Below the pieces are notes generated by a model. That model made no database searches. It was not told the origin of the DNA and saw only the letters and a program-made list of their open reading frames with translations. From positions 62,001-126,000 of the forward strand of contig NZ_KE150253.1 in assembly GCF_000411115.1 (NCBI RefSeq): 64,000 nt of DNA, given 5' to 3'. The position numbers were made by a program, and so were the translations under genes. Source of the stretch: Capnocytophaga granulosa ATCC 51502. GTDB lineage: Bacteria; Bacteroidota; Bacteroidia; Flavobacteriales; Flavobacteriaceae. Below are positions 41,114 to 64,000 of the stretch, piece after piece; position 1 is the first letter of the stretch, and every line of letters starts with the position of its first letter.

Positions 41114-41204
41114 TTTTTATTGAATTTCCGAGGTATTTCTATGGTGATTAACGTGAGTTCGATATAACAAAAGCTCCCGCGGATTTTCACGGATTTCACC
41201 CTCC

Positions 41205-41311
41205 GCTGGTGCGAGCTTGCAGCTCGTACCTATGATTATGGAGCTTGTAGCTCCTATAAAGAGCCAAAGGCTCTACTTGATAGTAGGCACGAGCTACAAG
41301 CTCGCGCCAGC
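41205..41311. repeat. Composite palindromic element, copy 1
   Basis: The outer arms GCTGGTGCGAGCTTGCAGCT and its counterpart GCTACAAGCTCGCGCCAGC are themselves palindromic. They flank GGAGCTTGTAGCTCC and AGAGCCAAAGGCTCT. The element repeats at 41417-41524 and, shortened and inverted, at 49136-49228. The flank at 41149-41180 (TAACGTGAGTTCGATATAAC) matches the end of another element at 58350. The remaining gap 41114-41680 has no gene. Confidence 0.8.
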
Positions 41312-41361
41312 AGAGGGAATAAATAAGGCAAAGGATTAGTTCCTAATTTGCTCTTTTTCAA

Positions 41362-41386
41362 GGGCTAATTGCCATTAGCCCCTACA
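41362..41386. repeat. GGGCTAATTGCCATTAGCCC palindrome
   Basis: Member of the GGGCGAATT family, followed by CTACACCTGCTCATGCTAAT. That same tail recurs at 53564-53590 and, in part, in the terminase gene. Confidence 0.7.
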
Positions 41387-41416
41387 CCTGCTCATGCTAA
41401 TTTTTCGTACCCCCCC

Positions 41417-41524
41417 GCTGGTGCGAGCTTGCAGCTCGTACCTAATGATTATGGAGTTTGTAGCTCTCATAAAGAGCCAAAGGCTCTACTTAATAGTAGG
41501 CACGAGCTACAAGCTCGCGCCAGC
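41417..41524. repeat. Composite palindromic element, copy 2
   Basis: Nearly identical to 41205-41311, including the GAGCTTGCAGCTC outer palindrome and the AGAGCCAAAGGCTCT inner hairpin. The two copies are in direct orientation about 105 bases apart. Confidence 0.8.
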
Positions 41525-41646
41525 AGAGGCTGGCCAAGATACCCCTTATTAGCATAGTCTTTACAGGGATGTATTGATAAAAATTAATATTACGGCAAAT
41601 GTACGAATTTTAATTGAGAATATTCTGTTGGAAAGGAAAAAAAACG

Positions 41647-53450: not shown

Positions 53451-53755
53451 GGGCGAATTGTCTTGCCCCTACATTAAAGAGCACGAGCTACAAGCTCGCG
53501 CTAGCATTTACTCTTTTTCAAGGGCGAATTGCTCACATACTCCGCTTTCGCGGACTTTGCTCCTACACCTGCTCATGCTAATTTTTCGTAAACTATTTCT
53601 GATCGACTATTATTAGAAGGCACGAGCTGCAAGCTTGCGTCAGCGAGGGGGTTAAAGGACACGAGCTACAAGCTCGCGCCAGCATGGGGACTATTATTAG
53701 AAGGCACAAGCTACAAGCTCGCGCCAGCGTGGGGCAACATTTTTGTCCATTAAGT
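53451..53755. repeat. Cluster of palindromes upstream of gdhA and downstream of cdsA
   Basis: Contains four GAGCTTGTAGCTC-family palindromes (53481-53505, 53619-53644, 53657-53683, 53703-53728). It also has a GGGCGAATT member (53451-53473), a nested CACATACTCCGCTTTCGCGG segment (53533-53552), and CTACACCTGCTCATGCTAAT. No gene is seen. Confidence 0.75.
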
Positions 53756-57187: not shown

Positions 57188-58225
57188 TTAATCATTAATC
57201 TTTGTTTTGATATAGCGTAGTTTGCTTGTGTTTTCTGGTAGGCCAATGGGGTAGATAGCGGCATAGAGGCATTGGTCTGCACCTAAGAAAACAGGTGTTT
57301 GCTGGTTCATGGCACATCGCCACCAAGCCAAGGAGGCTTTGACCATGGTCTTAAGGCGCAGGGGAGCGGTACCCTCTATGCGGTAGAGGGCGATATCGGT
57401 TTCGTCGTTGACGGGGTCGGTATGTAGGGTGATAATATGTTTTCTATCGGCTGAGAGCAGGGGAAAACCGTCCATATATAGCTCATTGCCTGTGGCCTTA
57501 TCGGTGAGTATATAAGGCACCACTTGCGTGCCTGTCACACGTACGATATATTGCTCTATGTCCTTATGCTCGCCTACATAGCTATAGATAACCTCGTTAA
57601 ATCCGTCCTGACTGATGTCCTCATATTTTACTTTTTTCTTTTGGCAAGGCAGGGATAGGATTTTTCCTGTTTTCTCAATTGTCTCGCCCTTATCAAAAGG
57701 CTTGGGGCGCTGCTGCAAAGCCTGCTGGTAGTCGGCCTCGGAGATAAGGGAGATAGAGAAAAACTCAGAGATATTATCCAAATCCTTAGGGGTGCGCGTA
57801 GTACCTTTGTATTCGGTGAGGTAGCTGACTTGCTCTAGCTCCTCAGGGGAGAAGATCTCATCTTTATAACCTACTTCGCTTTTGAGAACATAACTCTCAT
57901 GTGCTCCCTTTTTGACCTTGTAATAGGGGCCTTCTTCGCCTACTATTTCCAACTTGGTTCCCAAGGCGAAATCCTCCGTCTGGGGCTGGTCTTCCTTTTT
58001 AGGGGCTGGTCTGGCGTCTTCTTTGCCTAATACATATACTACCGAGCCGATGGGGAAATCGGGGCGGGTAGTGGGTGCTTGTGTTGTGTTTTCTTGGTTA
58101 TCGGCCTCTTGCCTGATGGGTGCTTGCTCCTGCGCAGTAGGAGTAGGGGAGGTTGTGGCTTGCTCTTCCTTTTTAGGCTGGCAAGCGGAGAGGATTATTA
58201 GAAGGCACAAGAGAGATTTTTTCAT
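57188..58225 (-). CDS. Lipoprotein with SH3-like domain, function unknown
   Basis: Predicted 345 residues. The signal MKKSLLCLLIILSAC is followed by QPKKEEQ, acidic at +6/+7 and partly like the surface-export signal. Next is a low-complexity Thr/Pro/Gln/Glu linker (to about residue 55). A probable bacterial SH3-like beta domain then covers residues 57-125 (GTKLEIVGEEGPYYKVKKG). The C-terminal 210 residues are beta-rich (QDGFNEVIYSYVGEHKDIEQ, LLSADRKHIITLHTDPVND) without catalytic motifs. It ends four bases from repeat element C. Confidence 0.65.
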   Translation of the reverse strand: MKKSLLCLLIILSACQPKKEEQATTSPTPTAQEQAPIRQEADNQENTTQAPTTRPDFPIGSVVYVLGKEDARPAPKKEDQPQTEDFALGTKLEIVGEEGPYYKVKKGAHESYVLKSEVGYKDEIFSPEELEQVSYLTEYKGTTRTPKDLDNISEFFSISLISEADYQQALQQRPKPFDKGETIEKTGKILSLPCQKKKVKYEDISQDGFNEVIYSYVGEHKDIEQYIVRVTGTQVVPYILTDKATGNELYMDGFPLLSADRKHIITLHTDPVNDETDIALYRIEGTAPLRLKTMVKASLAWWRCAMNQQTPVFLGADQCLYAAIYPIGLPENTSKLRYIKTKIND

Positions 58226-58349
58226 AGTTTTGAGTTTTGGGTTACAGACTACTGATATTGTAGGCTTTTATTTGTGCTAATAATAGATGACTATTCTATC
58301 GGATATCATTCCTTATAACATAGAGAGAAGACTTGTTGTCTTCTTTATT

Positions 58350-58525
58350 TAACGAGAGTTCAATATAACGAAAGCTCCCTCAAAGCCAGCGAGTACCCAC
58401 AGCTGGGTATGTGAAACACGGATTTCACAGATTTTCTATGTTTGTGTAATTGTGCTGTTGCGATTTACATAGAGGAATCTGTGGGAGAAAAAATATAATT
58501 TTGCTTATGTCGAACTCACGTTATT
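58350..58525. repeat. Element with inverted GAGTTC ends (about 175 bp)
   Basis: TAACGAGAGTTCAATATAAC at the left and GTCGAACTCACGTTA at the right form imperfect inverted ends. Inside, ACGGATTTCACAGATTTTCT and AGAGGAATCTGTGGGA pair. The left end matches 41149-41168. There is no coding capacity. Directly after it lies a GAGCTTGCAGCTC-type palindrome (58531-58555). Confidence 0.55.
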
Positions 58526-58630
58526 AAAGAGCATGAGCTGCAAGCTCGCGCCAGCGTGGGGGGGCTTGTAGAGACCACAAAAATAGTGCCACAAATTAGA
58601 GGAGAAGCAAATGCGACAATGAGTACATAT

Positions 58631-58681
58631 TACCCCTTATGAGAAGTTGCCAAAAGGATGGGCGTGGTGTAGGCTGGGGGA
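58631..58681 (+). repeat. Inverted repeat, cassette side (hsdS inversion site)
   Basis: 51 bases matching the reverse complement of 60549-60599 at 48 positions; the first 27 (TACCCCTTATGAGAAGTTGC then CAAAAGG) are exact. It encodes TPYEKLPKGW in the same frame as hsdS. Confidence 0.88.
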
Positions 58682-59177
58682 TATAGGTGAGATAATCGGA
58701 GGAGGTACTCCTTCCACTTCTATTGAGGAATATTGGAATGGTGAAGTTTCTTGGATTACTCCAGCTGATTTAAGCAATTATTCAGATAAGTATATAGCTC
58801 AAGGAAAGCGTAATATCACACAGTTAGGTTTAGATAATTCTTCTGCTAAATTAATTCCTAAAGGATCTATTTTATTTTCAACAAGGGCACCTATCGGCTA
58901 TGTAGTAATAGCTGATAGACCTTTATCTACTAATCAAGGTTTTAAAAGTCTATCTCTTTCTATAAATATGTCAGAAGAATTTGTATACTATTTCCTTTTA
59001 GCAGAGAAGGAAAGAATAAAACTTCTTGCTTCAGGTACCACTTTTCAAGAACTTTCAGCAAGTGCCTTTAGTAAGATTCTTATTCCTCTTCCTCCTCTTG
59101 CAGAGCAACACCGTATCGTTCAGCAAATAAAAAACTACTTTACAGCTTTTGACCAAATAGAAAAAGAATTGGCATAG
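58647..59177 (+). CDS. Silent half HsdS: single target-recognition domain cassette
   Basis: Predicted 176 residues from a TTG, though the frame is homologous from PYEK upstream and is preceded by an in-frame TGA. It consists of one HsdS target-recognition domain (GWAWCRLGDIGEIIGGGTPS, SWITPADLSNYSDK, ILFSTRAPIGYVVIAD) and the conserved helix PPLAEQHRIVQQIKNYFTAF. It lacks the N-terminal recognition domain and any obvious promoter, so it is probably not expressed as such. It is the inverted alternative of the second domain of hsdS (60062-60570), joined to it by the inverted repeats. After inversion it would become the 3' half of hsdS. Confidence 0.88.
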   Translation: MPKGWAWCRLGDIGEIIGGGTPSTSIEEYWNGEVSWITPADLSNYSDKYIAQGKRNITQLGLDNSSAKLIPKGSILFSTRAPIGYVVIADRPLSTNQGFKSLSLSINMSEEFVYYFLLAEKERIKLLASGTTFQELSASAFSKILIPLPPLAEQHRIVQQIKNYFTAFDQIEKELA

Positions 59178-59194
59178 AGAGCGAATACAGTTAA

Positions 59195-59218
59195 GGGCGA
59201 TTGGCCAATCGCCCCTAC
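59195..59218. terminator. GGGCGATTGGCCAATCGCCC palindrome between cassette and recombinase
   Basis: A perfect 20-base palindrome between the convergent cassette and recombinase genes. It belongs to the GGGCGAATT repeat family and could end transcription from either side. Confidence 0.5.
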
Positions 59219-59221
59219 GGC

Positions 59222-60025
59222 TTACCAATTGACAACCGTATCTACAATAGCCTGCTGCTCGCTGGCAGTACGCCTGAGATAGATACGAGTGGTCTCAATA
59301 CTTTCATGCCCCATAAGGTCGGCAAGGAGCATAAGGTCATTGAAGCGCTCTAAAAAGTTCTTAGCAAACCGATGTCTGAAAGAATGAGGATATACTACCT
59401 TAGGATTAAGCTGGTACTTATGGGCAAAAACTTTGAGTTGCTGTGCAATGCCTCGTGGGGTAATACGCTTACCAAAGCGATTAAGAAAGATATAACCCGA
59501 AGTGATTCCCTTTTCCTTAAGCCACAAACTACTTTCCTCACGCAAGAGTTTAGGAATATATAGGCGGCGTACCTTTCCGCCTTTGCTATAAAGATCCAAA
59601 TAGCCTTGAGTGAGGTGTTCTGCTTTTATCTGAATCAGTTCGCTCACACGCGCCCCTGTAGCGGTGAGAAACCATACGAGAAAATACCAATCCTCATACC
59701 CATCTTTTTTGAGTTGTGCCTTTAAGAACAAGTAATCCGCATGACTAATCACATGCTCTAAAAAGTTCTTTTGCTGTACCTTTACAAAGGACATCTTCAA
59801 GGAGCCTTTCTTGACGAAGTCTAAGTACTTGTTAATCGCCTGCAAACGCAGATTGACGGTTTGTGCTTTGTACTTGTCCAGCAGGAAATTCTTGTAAGCC
59901 ATCAGGTTTGGCTTGTTGATAATAGGGTATTTTTCTAAGAAATACCTCACTGTCCACACATACGAGTCTATCGTATTGGGTGCTAAGTTGCTTTTCTGGA
60001 GAAAAGACTTGAATTGTTCTATCAT
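59222..60025 (-). CDS. Tyrosine site-specific recombinase of the hsdS inversion locus
   Basis: Predicted 267 residues. An N-terminal SAM-like core-binding domain (SNLAPNTIDSYVWTVRYFLE) is followed by a catalytic domain with all key residues: Arg in TGARVSELIQIK, Lys in SKGGKVRR, HSFRHRFA (His and Arg), GHESIETTRIYL (His and nucleophile Tyr). Short and complete, like phase-variation recombinases of Bacteroidota and XerC/D relatives. It lies between the hsdS inverted repeats, so it is carried on the segment it would invert. Direct evidence that it acts on these repeats is lacking. Confidence 0.92.
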   Translation of the reverse strand: MIEQFKSFLQKSNLAPNTIDSYVWTVRYFLEKYPIINKPNLMAYKNFLLDKYKAQTVNLRLQAINKYLDFVKKGSLKMSFVKVQQKNFLEHVISHADYLFLKAQLKKDGYEDWYFLVWFLTATGARVSELIQIKAEHLTQGYLDLYSKGGKVRRLYIPKLLREESSLWLKEKGITSGYIFLNRFGKRITPRGIAQQLKVFAHKYQLNPKVVYPHSFRHRFAKNFLERFNDLMLLADLMGHESIETTRIYLRRTASEQQAIVDTVVNW

Positions 60026-60061
60026 TTCTTTAAAATTTAGAAATGATAATAAACGAACTTT

Positions 60062-61495
60062 TTACAAACTATTTTCTATGGTATCTAAAAAAGAAAAATA
60101 AGTCTCTATTTTTTGGACGATACGGTACTGCTCCGCAAGAGGAGGAAGAGGGATTGTTAAGTTCTCTATCATTTTTCCACTTATATTGGGTTGAGCTCCA
60201 CCATAAGCCATTTTTAGAATTTCATCACTTTTTGTTTGCATAATATAATTTCTAAATTTATGAAAAAAGATATCTTTATTTCTTATCTTAATATTTCCTA
60301 CTCGCTGATTCAATACAGCTTCTCTATCTAACTTATAAACTCCCATTTTTCCTGTTGTGGCTCCTGACATCGCTATCAATAAATCCCCATATTCCACCAT
60401 AAACCTTTTATCATATTCTATTTTTATAAAGACAGCCTCCGAAATATCTATTTTTCCATTCTTTATATTAGAAATTCTTATCAAAGGAGTTCCATTTTTT
60501 TGATAATCATCACTATTAAAGGCATAACCATTTTCAAAACTGCACACTTCCCCCAGCTTACACCACACCCACCCTTTTGGCAACTTCTCATAAGGGGTAT
60601 CAGCAGCAGTTGTAGTTGTTTTGCCTATACGCTTAAGAAGTTCTTCCGCAGGTTCATCATTAGGGTCTTGGTGGGTAAGTTTGCCCGCTATGGCATAGTT
60701 GAGCACCTGATTTTTAGCCTGCTTAACATCGGATTTGAGCTGCTCTTTATGGGTTTCTATAGTATCCACAAGAGCAAAAAGCTGTTCTACTTTTTCAACA
60801 ATACGATGCTGCTCTGCAAGGGGAGGGATAGGAATAAGTAAGTTTAAAGTGTTCTCAGAACCTATATTCCCTTGATTAACATTTCCTGTTTCTGTTTGAA
60901 AAATAGAATCTAATACAAATTGGTGTTTTAAAACAAGGTTGATAAAATAGATATTTAATTCTGAAAGAATAACTCTTAATAATCCAACTCTTTGATTAAG
61001 GTATAAGTTGTGTTTGACCTTCGGAACAACTAAAGTATAAAAATAATCTCTTTTACCTTTTGTTCCTGTCATTGTAAAAAGTAAATCATTTTCTTTAATA
61101 TGATAATCTTCAATTTCATTTTGTAAGGTGTCAGGAATATAAACAGGTTGATTACTGAGTATGAGATTATTATTTTTTACATTTCCTATTCTTATTACTT
61201 GATTATTAGATTTTTCTATGTACTTATTACTCTTAAAAGCATATCCTCCCTTAAAAAAGCACACTTCCCCCAACCTACACCACTCCCATCCTTCGGGAAG
61301 TTCAAAGGGGATTTCATCAATTGGTTCGTTGTCTTTTTTGTCTCGTTTGAGCTTTTTATCTTTGATAAGCTGCTCTTTCTCTGCACGAATACGCTCCAAG
61401 AGCACGGAGGCAGGTTCATCGGTGGGATCTTGGGGGACTAACTCCCCACGGATAGCTAGGTCTAATATCTTTTGTCGTATTTGCTTAGTGTTCAT
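60062..61495 (-). CDS. hsdS: Type I restriction-modification specificity subunit HsdS
   Basis: Predicted 477 residues with the usual two-half layout. The first recognition domain (about residues 65-215) starts FELPEGWEWCRLGEVCFFKG, and the first central helix is LAEQHRIVEKVEQLFALVDTIETHKEQL. After the central region DTPYEKLPKGWVWCKLGEVC begins the second domain (about 300-450), ending with the second helix LAEQYRIVQKIETYFSFLD. It sets DNA target specificity for the HsdM/HsdR complex. Its start overlaps the end of rhuM copy 1 by 11 bases. Second-domain exchange by inversion is expected. Confidence 0.93.
   Translation of the reverse strand: MNTKQIRQKILDLAIRGELVPQDPTDEPASVLLERIRAEKEQLIKDKKLKRDKKDNEPIDEIPFELPEGWEWCRLGEVCFFKGGYAFKSNKYIEKSNNQVIRIGNVKNNNLILSNQPVYIPDTLQNEIEDYHIKENDLLFTMTGTKGKRDYFYTLVVPKVKHNLYLNQRVGLLRVILSELNIYFINLVLKHQFVLDSIFQTETGNVNQGNIGSENTLNLLIPIPPLAEQHRIVEKVEQLFALVDTIETHKEQLKSDVKQAKNQVLNYAIAGKLTHQDPNDEPAEELLKRIGKTTTTAADTPYEKLPKGWVWCKLGEVCSFENGYAFNSDDYQKNGTPLIRISNIKNGKIDISEAVFIKIEYDKRFMVEYGDLLIAMSGATTGKMGVYKLDREAVLNQRVGNIKIRNKDIFFHKFRNYIMQTKSDEILKMAYGGAQPNISGKMIENLTIPLPPLAEQYRIVQKIETYFSFLDTIENSL
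60549..60599 (-). repeat. Inverted repeat, hsdS side (hsdS inversion site)
   Basis: Partner of 58631-58681. It lies at codons about 300-316 of hsdS, exactly at the join between the central region and the second recognition domain. The invertible segment between the outer ends is 1969 bases. Confidence 0.88.
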
Positions 61496-62516
61496 GGTTT
61501 ATAAGTTTTATATCTTTCTCCCAAGCTTCTATTTCTTTTAAATCGTACAAGTCTGCTTGTTGTGCCTCAAATTGTTTGCGTTTGGCATCAAATGCTTCAT
61601 ATACTTTACCTACGATCTTTTTCATTTGTTCATTACTAATCGTACCATTTCCTTTAAGAACTTCTTTGTCATTAAAAGCAATGACTTTATCTATATTCTC
61701 TCGCCAAAAATTCATAGTAATATCTTGTCTGTTTTTAGCCCTCAATTCTGCTGATTCTAAAAACACTATTACAAAACGATTCAGAGTATCTATTTCATCC
61801 TCTGTAAGATAGTTTTTTGCAATATAAATATCCCCTTTTCTTACTATTGAACCTTCCCATGAGGTAAGAGCCATATTGCTTTTGGAAGCATCGGCTCGGC
61901 TTACTACTATTTCAGCGGCTGTTTGTCCTGTAATCGCATAGAGTATTTTATTCTGAGTTTGTGCATAGAACATTTGTGTTGCCTTATCAGAAGGATCATA
62001 ATCACTGCTAAGCATAAAGAGATCTCTCACTTTCTGATAAAAACGTTTTTCAGAGGCTCTAATATCACGAATACGCTCTAATAACTCATCAAAATAATCA
62101 GGGCGTCCATCGGGATTTTTAAGGCGTTCATCGTCCATTACAAATCCTTTAACCATATATTCTCTTAGATGTTGGTTCGCCCATTGTCTGAACTGTACCC
62201 CTCGTTTACTTCGTACCCTAAAACCAATGGCAAGAATCATTTCCAAACTGTAAAAAGTAACTTCATAATCTTTGCCGTCAGAAGCAGTTGTCAAATAATT
62301 TTTGACAACTGATCTTTGATCTAACTCGTTATCATTCAGTATATTAATTATATGATAACTAATACTCTGCTTAGAGGTGTCAAAAAGGTTAGCTAACTGA
62401 TTTTGGTTGAGCCATATTGAGCCATCTTTGGCGTATAAGGCTATTTTTACCTTGTCATCCACTGTTTTATAGATAATAATATCTTGGGGTGTTTTCTCTG
62501 TTTTTTTATTACTCAT
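61485..62516 (-). CDS. rhuM: RhuM-family protein (copy 1) in the hsd operon
   Basis: Predicted 343 residues. The N-terminal winged-helix-like part (DGSIWLNQNQLANLFDTSKQ, YEVTFYSLEMILAIGFRVRS, FRQWANQHLREYMVKGFVMD) and the middle (FYQKVRDLFMLSSDYDPSDK, GQTAAEIVVSRADASKSNM) match the RhuM family of unknown function, first named in a Salmonella pathogenicity island and often linked to restriction-modification loci. It overlaps hsdS by 11 bases and follows copy 2 after 24 bases, so it is within the operon. About 40% similar to copy 2. No catalytic site is known for the family. Confidence 0.9.
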   Translation of the reverse strand: MSNKKTEKTPQDIIIYKTVDDKVKIALYAKDGSIWLNQNQLANLFDTSKQSISYHIINILNDNELDQRSVVKNYLTTASDGKDYEVTFYSLEMILAIGFRVRSKRGVQFRQWANQHLREYMVKGFVMDDERLKNPDGRPDYFDELLERIRDIRASEKRFYQKVRDLFMLSSDYDPSDKATQMFYAQTQNKILYAITGQTAAEIVVSRADASKSNMALTSWEGSIVRKGDIYIAKNYLTEDEIDTLNRFVIVFLESAELRAKNRQDITMNFWRENIDKVIAFNDKEVLKGNGTISNEQMKKIVGKVYEAFDAKRKQFEAQQADLYDLKEIEAWEKDIKLINHEH

Positions 62517-62540
62517 CTGCCATTATTTTTTTGGGTTGGG

Positions 62541-64000
<1,460 letters not shown>

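What the first reader, a model, noticed from the sequence alone, without database searches (positions are those of the whole stretch)
58631..60599. Self-contained invertible hsdS specificity switch
Sequence: a 51-bp inverted repeat (48 of 51, 27 exact at the outer end) joins a silent single-domain hsdS cassette to the second half of the active hsdS. A complete tyrosine recombinase gene lies between. The repeat is in the same codon phase at both sites (TPYEKLPKGW), so inversion keeps the frame and swaps the second recognition domain. Knowledge: hsdS shuffling by Tyr recombinases occurs in Bacteroides and streptococci. Inference: this locus switches between two methylation specificities, changing the epigenome. 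The cassette has no start region of its own and an in-frame TGA just upstream, as expected for a silent partner.
Basis: partly seen in the sequence, partly recalled or inferred. Interest (0 to 1): 0.85.

Follow-up and report, generated by a model that had tools for sequence, protein, structure and literature searches.

The report
Two-state invertible DNA-methylation specificity switch
A mouth bacterium (Capnocytophaga) carries a small DNA segment that appears able to flip over, swapping half of the protein that tells its restriction-modification enzyme which DNA sequence to mark; this is a compact version of a kind of switch already known in other bacteria.

Summary
A 51-bp inverted repeat (48 of 51; 27 exact; 15 at most in 300 shuffles) links the second half of an intact hsdS to a start-less single-domain cassette, with a tyrosine recombinase between. 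Inversion keeps the frame (477 to 480 aa). Two Capnocytophaga genomes (F0517, ATCC 33624) hold the same two second domains with active and silent swapped (97-98% identical) and the recombinase turned round relative to hsdM. Public proteins match both the window's HsdS (P0124, 96%) and its predicted inversion product (P0121, 97%). Among 120 HsdS picked by N-terminus alone, the two side-specific tails split 56:52, 12 unclassified. The 21-bp site occurs exactly twice, inverted, in the window and in both genomes, and in none of 18 congeners. Of 87 loci with recombinase relatives, 71 have hsdS alongside and 54 in-phase repeats. Verdict: a new, minimal, two-state member of the known hsdS invertons. 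Switching within one clone, the catalyst, and a methylome change are not shown. A recombinase relative borders a similar switch on a helicase-methylase enzyme in two congeners.

The parts
58631..58681 (+). outer inverted-repeat arm at the start of the silent cassette; conserved 21-bp site TACCCCTTATGAGAAGTTGCC at 58631-58651
60549..60599 (-). inner inverted-repeat arm inside the active hsdS, at the start of recognition domain 2; 21-bp site at 60579-60599
58632..59177 (+). silent hsdS cassette: one recognition domain (about 58689-59078) plus C-terminal tail ending QIEKELA, no start codon in frame after the TGA
58620..58622 (+). in-frame TGA upstream of the silent cassette
59222..60025 (-). tyrosine recombinase inside the invertible segment; Arg, Lys, His-x-x-Arg, His, Tyr regions align with XerC-like 4a8e
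60026..60061 (-). 36-bp gap between hsdS stop and recombinase start, nearly identical in three genomes; possible regulatory stretch (inference)
60062..61495 (-). active hsdS, 477 aa: recognition domain 1 at about 60842-61258, domain 2 at about 60158-60541, tail ending IENSL
58631..60599 (.). predicted invertible segment, 1,969 bp
   Evidence: orientation in relatives
61485..62516 (-). RhuM-family gene between hsdM and hsdS (extra copy, absent at this place in the two close relatives)
62541..63560 (-). RhuM-family gene between hsdM and hsdS (counterpart in both close relatives by sequence; the L001 one also scanned)
63553..63999 (-). 3' end of hsdM (N6_Mtase), cut by the window end

Best explanation
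A two-state type I specificity switch (hsdS inverton). Site-specific recombination between two inverted copies of a site lying in the codons for TPYEKLPKGW turns over 1.97 kb that holds domain 2 of the active hsdS, the recombinase gene and a silent domain-2 cassette. The hsdM-rhuM-hsdS gene row (presumably one operon) keeps domain 1 and exchanges domain 2 with its C-terminal tail, in frame, so the enzyme would recognise a target with one constant and one changed half. Domain 1 would not switch because its start lacks the site. Shown: anatomy, frame, opposite states in different genomes, proteins close to both products in nature. Inferred: catalysis by the adjacent recombinase (by analogy with PsrA), switching within a clone, altered methylome.
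For: Repeat and frame. Same domain pair in opposite states in L001 and L002 with the recombinase inverted relative to hsdM. Proteins close to both products, P0124 96.0% and P0121 97.3%. Tails 56 R: 52 L: 12 unclassified in the best 120 of 7202 HsdS hits chosen by N-terminus alone, with domain-1 families paired with different domain-2 families on both tails. Site twice per genome and inverted in the window and two relatives, absent from the other 18 of 20 Capnocytophaga genomes. Recombinase family: 71 of 87 loci beside hsdS, 60 with opposite-strand hsdS parts, 54 with in-phase exact repeats of 18 or more. Active-site regions. hsdR and full hsdM in relative L001.
Against: No read-level or single-clone evidence; the window's own genome is not held. 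P0121 and P0124 come from other strains and differ from the window's products by 2.7% and 4%. Some domain-2 clusters occur with both tails (cluster 0: 31 R, 3 L; cluster 1: 12 R, 5 L; cluster 12: 3 R, 3 L), so domains also move by ordinary recombination between strains. ATCC 33624 has its hsdS frame interrupted at a poly-T run in the assembly. 16 of 87 recombinase loci had no hsdS in the stretch held. The in-phase repeats of the 54 loci had no shuffle control, and homologous genes on opposite strands share some in-phase stretches anyway. [quoted passage not shown]
Confidence: 0.92

Rival explanations
1. The repeat inverts by general homologous recombination or another recombinase; the adjacent gene is not the catalyst.
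For: [quoted passage not shown]
Against: The identical stretch here is only 27 bp within a 51-bp repeat. Among 20 Capnocytophaga genomes the site is present only in the two that carry the 97%-identical recombinase, not in the six with more distant members of the family. The family lies at hsdS inverted repeats in 54 of 87 loci.
Confidence: 0.1
2. A dead relic: the two genomes in opposite states and the mixed protein pool reflect allelic replacement between strains, and no switching occurs today.
For: Some domain-2 clusters are seen on both tails, which needs exchange between strains; the ATCC 33624 hsdS frame is interrupted in its assembly.
Against: Simple domain replacement does not explain why recombinase and both tails turn round together, nor the near 1:1 tails, an open recombinase frame in three genomes and the 21-bp sites kept in all six arms.
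Confidence: 0.06
3. The cassette is expressed as a separate half-HsdS subunit rather than being silent.
For: Half-length HsdS proteins can work as dimers in some type I systems (recalled, from no call); an in-frame ATG lies upstream.
Against: In-frame stop codons lie upstream with 3, 3 and 11 codons between stop and site in the window, L001 and L002, and the DNA upstream differs between genomes up to the site; the cassette lacks the N-terminal and central conserved regions.
Confidence: 0.03

Closest known systems
Listeria monocytogenes ST8 hsd locus (PMC4783014, passages seen)
   Same: Two oppositely oriented hsdS genes flank an integrase with tyrosine-recombinase active-site residues; inversion at repeats inside hsdS; strains found in different states.
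   Different: Listeria has two repeat pairs and four variants; here one repeat pair, one domain-2 cassette, two states.
Streptococcus pneumoniae cod / SpnIII locus with PsrA (PMC4948785 and PMC7096588, passages seen)
   Same: Silent hsdS parts as sequence donors, recombinase gene in the locus, inversions between repeats inside hsdS.
   Different: Three repeat pairs and six HsdS forms, tested by experiment; here two states and no experiment.
Epigenetic invertons of host-associated bacteria (Huang et al. 2020 NAR, PMC7672463; not held, citation seen, content recalled) and the REBASE survey PMC7394358 (passages seen)
   Same: Type I loci with duplicated hsdS, inverted repeats and often an invertase; Bacteroides fragilis is named as a carrier in PMC4948785.
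   Different: Capnocytophaga is not named in the main text of PMC7394358; its data sets were not read.
Bacteroidales hsdS loci carrying the same recombinase family (L003-L056)
   Same: Recombinase mostly 68-76% identical, hsdS parts on opposite strands, in-phase repeats, the GATANNNNNCA motif at domain starts.
   Different: Usually two or three hsdS parts and often sites at both domains; here the domain-1 site is absent and the only partner is a domain-2 cassette.

Membership tests
Type I hsdS inverton | hsdS in a type I locus with hsdM (and hsdR) | tested here: met
   hsdM 3' end in the window; complete hsdM and hsdR scanned in relative L001 only; not in the window
Type I hsdS inverton | second, silent hsdS part in opposite orientation joined by inverted repeats in the same codon phase | tested here: met
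   (silence itself inferred from the missing start)
Type I hsdS inverton | site-specific recombinase at the locus with the catalytic residues | tested here: met
   PF00589; active-site regions aligned with XerC-like 4a8e; activity not tested
Type I hsdS inverton | both orientations found in nature | tested here: met
   between genomes and as proteins; not within one clone
Type I hsdS inverton | each state methylates its own motif | not testable with these tools
   needs methylome data
Four-state (two repeat pairs) inverting type I locus | a second inverted-repeat pair at the start of domain 1 | tested here: not met
   the 21-bp site occurs only twice in the window at up to 3 mismatches; start of domain 1 lacks the motif
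XerA/XerC-like tyrosine recombinase family of hsdS shufflers | sequence membership | tested here: met

The most novel reading that the evidence does not exclude
The locus is a multi-state hsdS shuffler that has been reduced to a strict binary switch: the recombinase family often has a shared in-frame motif (GATANNNNNCA) at the starts of both domains, and this lineage keeps a shortened form only at domain 2, so domain 1 is fixed within a strain while separate domain pools (domain 1, right-arm domain 2, left-arm domain 2) supply variety between strains. A recombinase of the same family has in two other Capnocytophaga genomes been put to use on a helicase-Eco57I methylase enzyme, where the repeat runs into the NPPY codons.
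Probability: 0.5. Interest if true: 0.6.

Novelty: new member of a known kind. Interest (0 to 1): 0.45.

Why it matters
A two-state switch with one variable half is about the simplest natural setting in which to ask what changing half of a type I target does to phage defence, DNA uptake and gene expression, without the four to six states of known loci. It also gives a concrete site (21 bp, one inverted pair per genome) for a recombinase family spread over human-associated Bacteroidota and Treponema.

Tried and rejected
Idea that one orientation should prevail because the recombinase follows hsdS on the same strand in one state only: of 87 loci, recombinase and full-length hsdS lie on the same strand in 21, opposite in 23, undetermined in 43; no bias, so not claimed.

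The first tail count (41 R-like, 8 L-like, 19 other of 68; with a broader rule, 44 R, 17 L, 3 unclassified of 64) was biased by its query, the inverted product. It was replaced by the N-terminus-only sample, which is still only the best 120 of 7202 hits, each a 90%-identity cluster. The 12 unclassified there are truncated or interrupted proteins, members of other families, and P0284, which by eye has a left-type tail. Domain clusters use 112 of the 120; 25 clusters were printed.

The motif GATANNNNNCA was picked after looking at the sequences, and the assignment to domain 1 or 2 is by approximate profile position, so its counts are descriptive.

Viral contigs for the 21-bp site: none. Literature: no paper held all of Capnocytophaga, hsdS, inversion or Capnocytophaga, phase variation, type I restriction; one search found 16 papers with two of three terms, and none of the 10 listed treats it by title. 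The library lacks most subscription papers. For the methylase switch, (5 papers; 1 paper; 12 of 92 listed) showed no such case by title; the BREX pglX inversion precedent is recalled only.

Rows dropped before counts: L081-L092 (short duplicates of L001/L002). Several loci are cut by contig ends. One search prints at most four repeats per locus, and some printed repeats lie at the gene's end rather than at a domain start. Recombinase queries began at the second codon (59222-60022).

Full report
WHAT IS THERE. The window is Capnocytophaga: 49235-53265 matches strain F0517 (oral taxon 863, L001) at 96.9%, and the recombinase is 97% identical to those of F0517 and C. gingivalis ATCC 33624 (L002). 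The species is not settled and the window's genome is not held. On the minus strand lie the end of hsdM, two RhuM-family genes, hsdS (60062-61495) and, 36 bp on, a tyrosine recombinase (59222-60025). Beyond it, on the plus strand, is a single-domain hsdS cassette (58632-59177). hsdR is not in the window. In L001 a gene upstream of hsdM scans as the type I R subunit (EcoEI_R_C, ResIII; PADLOC REase_I at 8.8e-217); L002 has an ORF of like length and like ends in the same direction, not scanned.

THE REPEAT. Arms 58631-58681 and 60549-60599 agree at 48 of 51, the outer 27 exactly. The longest exact inverted repeat in 58000-61500 is 27 nt; in 300 dinucleotide shuffles the maximum was 15. Inversion would give a 480-aa HsdS with an open frame, and would leave the former domain 2 in the silent place behind the same in-frame TGA. 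The three domains are unalike: active domain 2 is 38% identical to domain 1, the silent one 28% to either.

OPPOSITE STATES IN NATURE. F0517 has active domain KTIATKPYQ... and silent domain ...ILNTMKSQKPSGEK...; ATCC 33624 has the reverse. The counterparts are 98% and 97% identical. The recombinase lies on the hsdM strand in F0517 and in the window, and on the other strand in ATCC 33624. Two strains thus hold one cassette pair in two states, with the whole segment turned. Against a perfect case: the ATCC 33624 hsdS frame is interrupted after domain 1 in the assembly, and its domain 1 differs from that of F0517.

THE PRODUCTS AS PROTEINS. Searching with the predicted inversion product returned P0121, 480 aa, 97.3% identical over its length; the same list holds P0124, 477 aa, 96.0% identical to the HsdS the window encodes as read. 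Both come from other strains.

POPULATION PICTURE. The two sides of the segment carry different C-terminal tails (right: DQIEKELA-like; left: FSFLDTIENSL-like). With the first 78 residues of HsdS as the only query, so blind to domains and tails, the best 120 of 7202 hits gave 56 right, 52 left and 12 unclassified. Several second-position domain clusters (75% identity) are largely tied to one side: cluster 0, 31 right and 3 left; cluster 2, 0 and 15; cluster 9, 0 and 8. Others are mixed: cluster 1, 12 and 5; cluster 12, 3 and 3. Of the 25 clusters printed, three (0, 1, 2) hold first- and second-position members; the other first-position clusters hold first-position members only. Domain-1 families pair with several second domains on both tails. 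So a strain appears to have two states, and the species many combinations. The mixed clusters show that domains also move between sides by other means.

THE SITE. TACCCCTTATGAGAAGTTRCC is in all six arms of the three genomes. It occurs exactly twice and inverted in the window (none further at up to 3 mismatches), exactly twice and inverted in each of the two relatives' genomes, and never in the other 18 of 20 Capnocytophaga genomes searched at up to 2 mismatches, with no hit of the backward control pattern. DNA upstream of the silent cassette differs between the three genomes up to this site, with some likeness between the window and F0517.

THE RECOMBINASE FAMILY. Of 87 loci (80, six from congeners, and the window), 71 have hsdS near the recombinase, 60 have hsdS parts on opposite strands, and 54 have an exact inverted repeat of 18 or more between such parts in the same codon phase. 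Many loci are cut by contig ends; there was no shuffle control, and part of such likeness is plain homology. By record title the hosts are Bacteroidota, Treponema and a few MAGs labelled otherwise. The motif GATANNNNNCA lies at the start of domain 2 in 54 of 62 loci and of domain 1 in 43 of 70, against 2 and 7 for the reversed pattern, nearly always in one codon phase (95 of 96 and 56 of 60 hits); the stricter GATAHNNNNCAYT gives 48 and 40, reversed 0 and 0. The motif was chosen after seeing the sequences and is partly protein homology. The window's domain-2 site (GATACCCCTTAT, active arm only) is a shortened likeness, and its domain-1 start (GATGAAATCCCCTTTGAA) lacks it, which fits a switch confined to domain 2.

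CATALYST. The protein aligns over most of its length with a XerC-like structure (4a8e, 5e-17), including the Arg, Lys, His-x-x-Arg, His and Tyr regions (residue roles recalled). That this protein turns the segment is inferred from PsrA, shown to invert hsdS repeats (PMC7096588 and PMC4948785, passages); a contrary pneumococcal report exists (PMC6620402, abstract).

COMPARISON AND NOVELTY. hsdS inversion is well known: Listeria (PMC4783014), pneumococcus, a REBASE survey (PMC7394358), signs in 13 species in PMC5903667 (passages). This is a new member with very few parts: one repeat pair, one cassette, one recombinase. I found no paper on it in Capnocytophaga in the held library.

SIDE FINDING. 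In two other Capnocytophaga genomes the family member (64% identical) sits beside a roughly 1300-aa enzyme (ResIII helicase plus Eco57I methylase; PADLOC type IIG-like at 2.4e-67 for the L099 one) and a silent C-terminal cassette on the other strand; a YhcG-type nuclease gene lies between them, and the recombinase just outside the repeat. A 26-bp exact inverted repeat covers the codons for IDxIIGNPP, running into the NPPY motif (motif role recalled). The cassette active in L099 is 96.9% identical to the silent one in L100, while the other two cassettes differ (36-37%); the middle segment is inverted between the two genomes with collinear flanks. Among 20 Capnocytophaga genomes the full-length fused enzyme was found in these 2; a third has only partial matches in separate frames. 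Whether this is in print I could not settle.

Noticed in passing
L099:7690-14649 and L100:1370-8344 (two other Capnocytophaga genomes): Apparent inverting specificity switch on a ~1300-aa helicase-Eco57I methylase enzyme: a 26-bp inverted repeat running into the NPPY codons joins it to a silent C-terminal cassette; one shared cassette is active in one genome and silent in the other, with a YhcG-type nuclease gene inside the turned segment.
   Followed up: yes
window 53474-53730, 58524-58557, also 20318, 41204-41525, 49204: A ~26-34 nt partly palindromic repeat (GCACGAGCTACAAGCTCGCGCCAGCA-like), 11 copies in the window at up to 3 mismatches, 9 to 107 per genome in four Capnocytophaga genomes at up to 2; unexplained, REP-like.
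   Followed up: partly
window 61485-63560: Two RhuM-family genes sit between hsdM and hsdS; the close relatives have one there. PADLOC lists the family as candidate defence PDC-S05.
   Followed up: no
L002:11588-11651: hsdS of C. gingivalis ATCC 33624 is interrupted at a poly-T run after domain 1 in the assembly: sequencing error or slippage, not resolved.
   Followed up: no
L008, L027, L032, L033, L059, L072: 16 of 87 recombinase relatives had no hsdS in the stretch held. Nine of the 16 were looked at: these six showed no exact inverted repeat of 18 within 4 kb, so they look solitary with an unknown target; two are the methylase switches above and one (L098) is cut by a contig end.
   Followed up: partly
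window 59222-60025 versus congeners: The recombinase is nearer to the best Bacteroidales copies (up to 76%) than to most other Capnocytophaga copies (63-66% in five of six, 74% in one), suggesting the locus moved between families.
   Followed up: no
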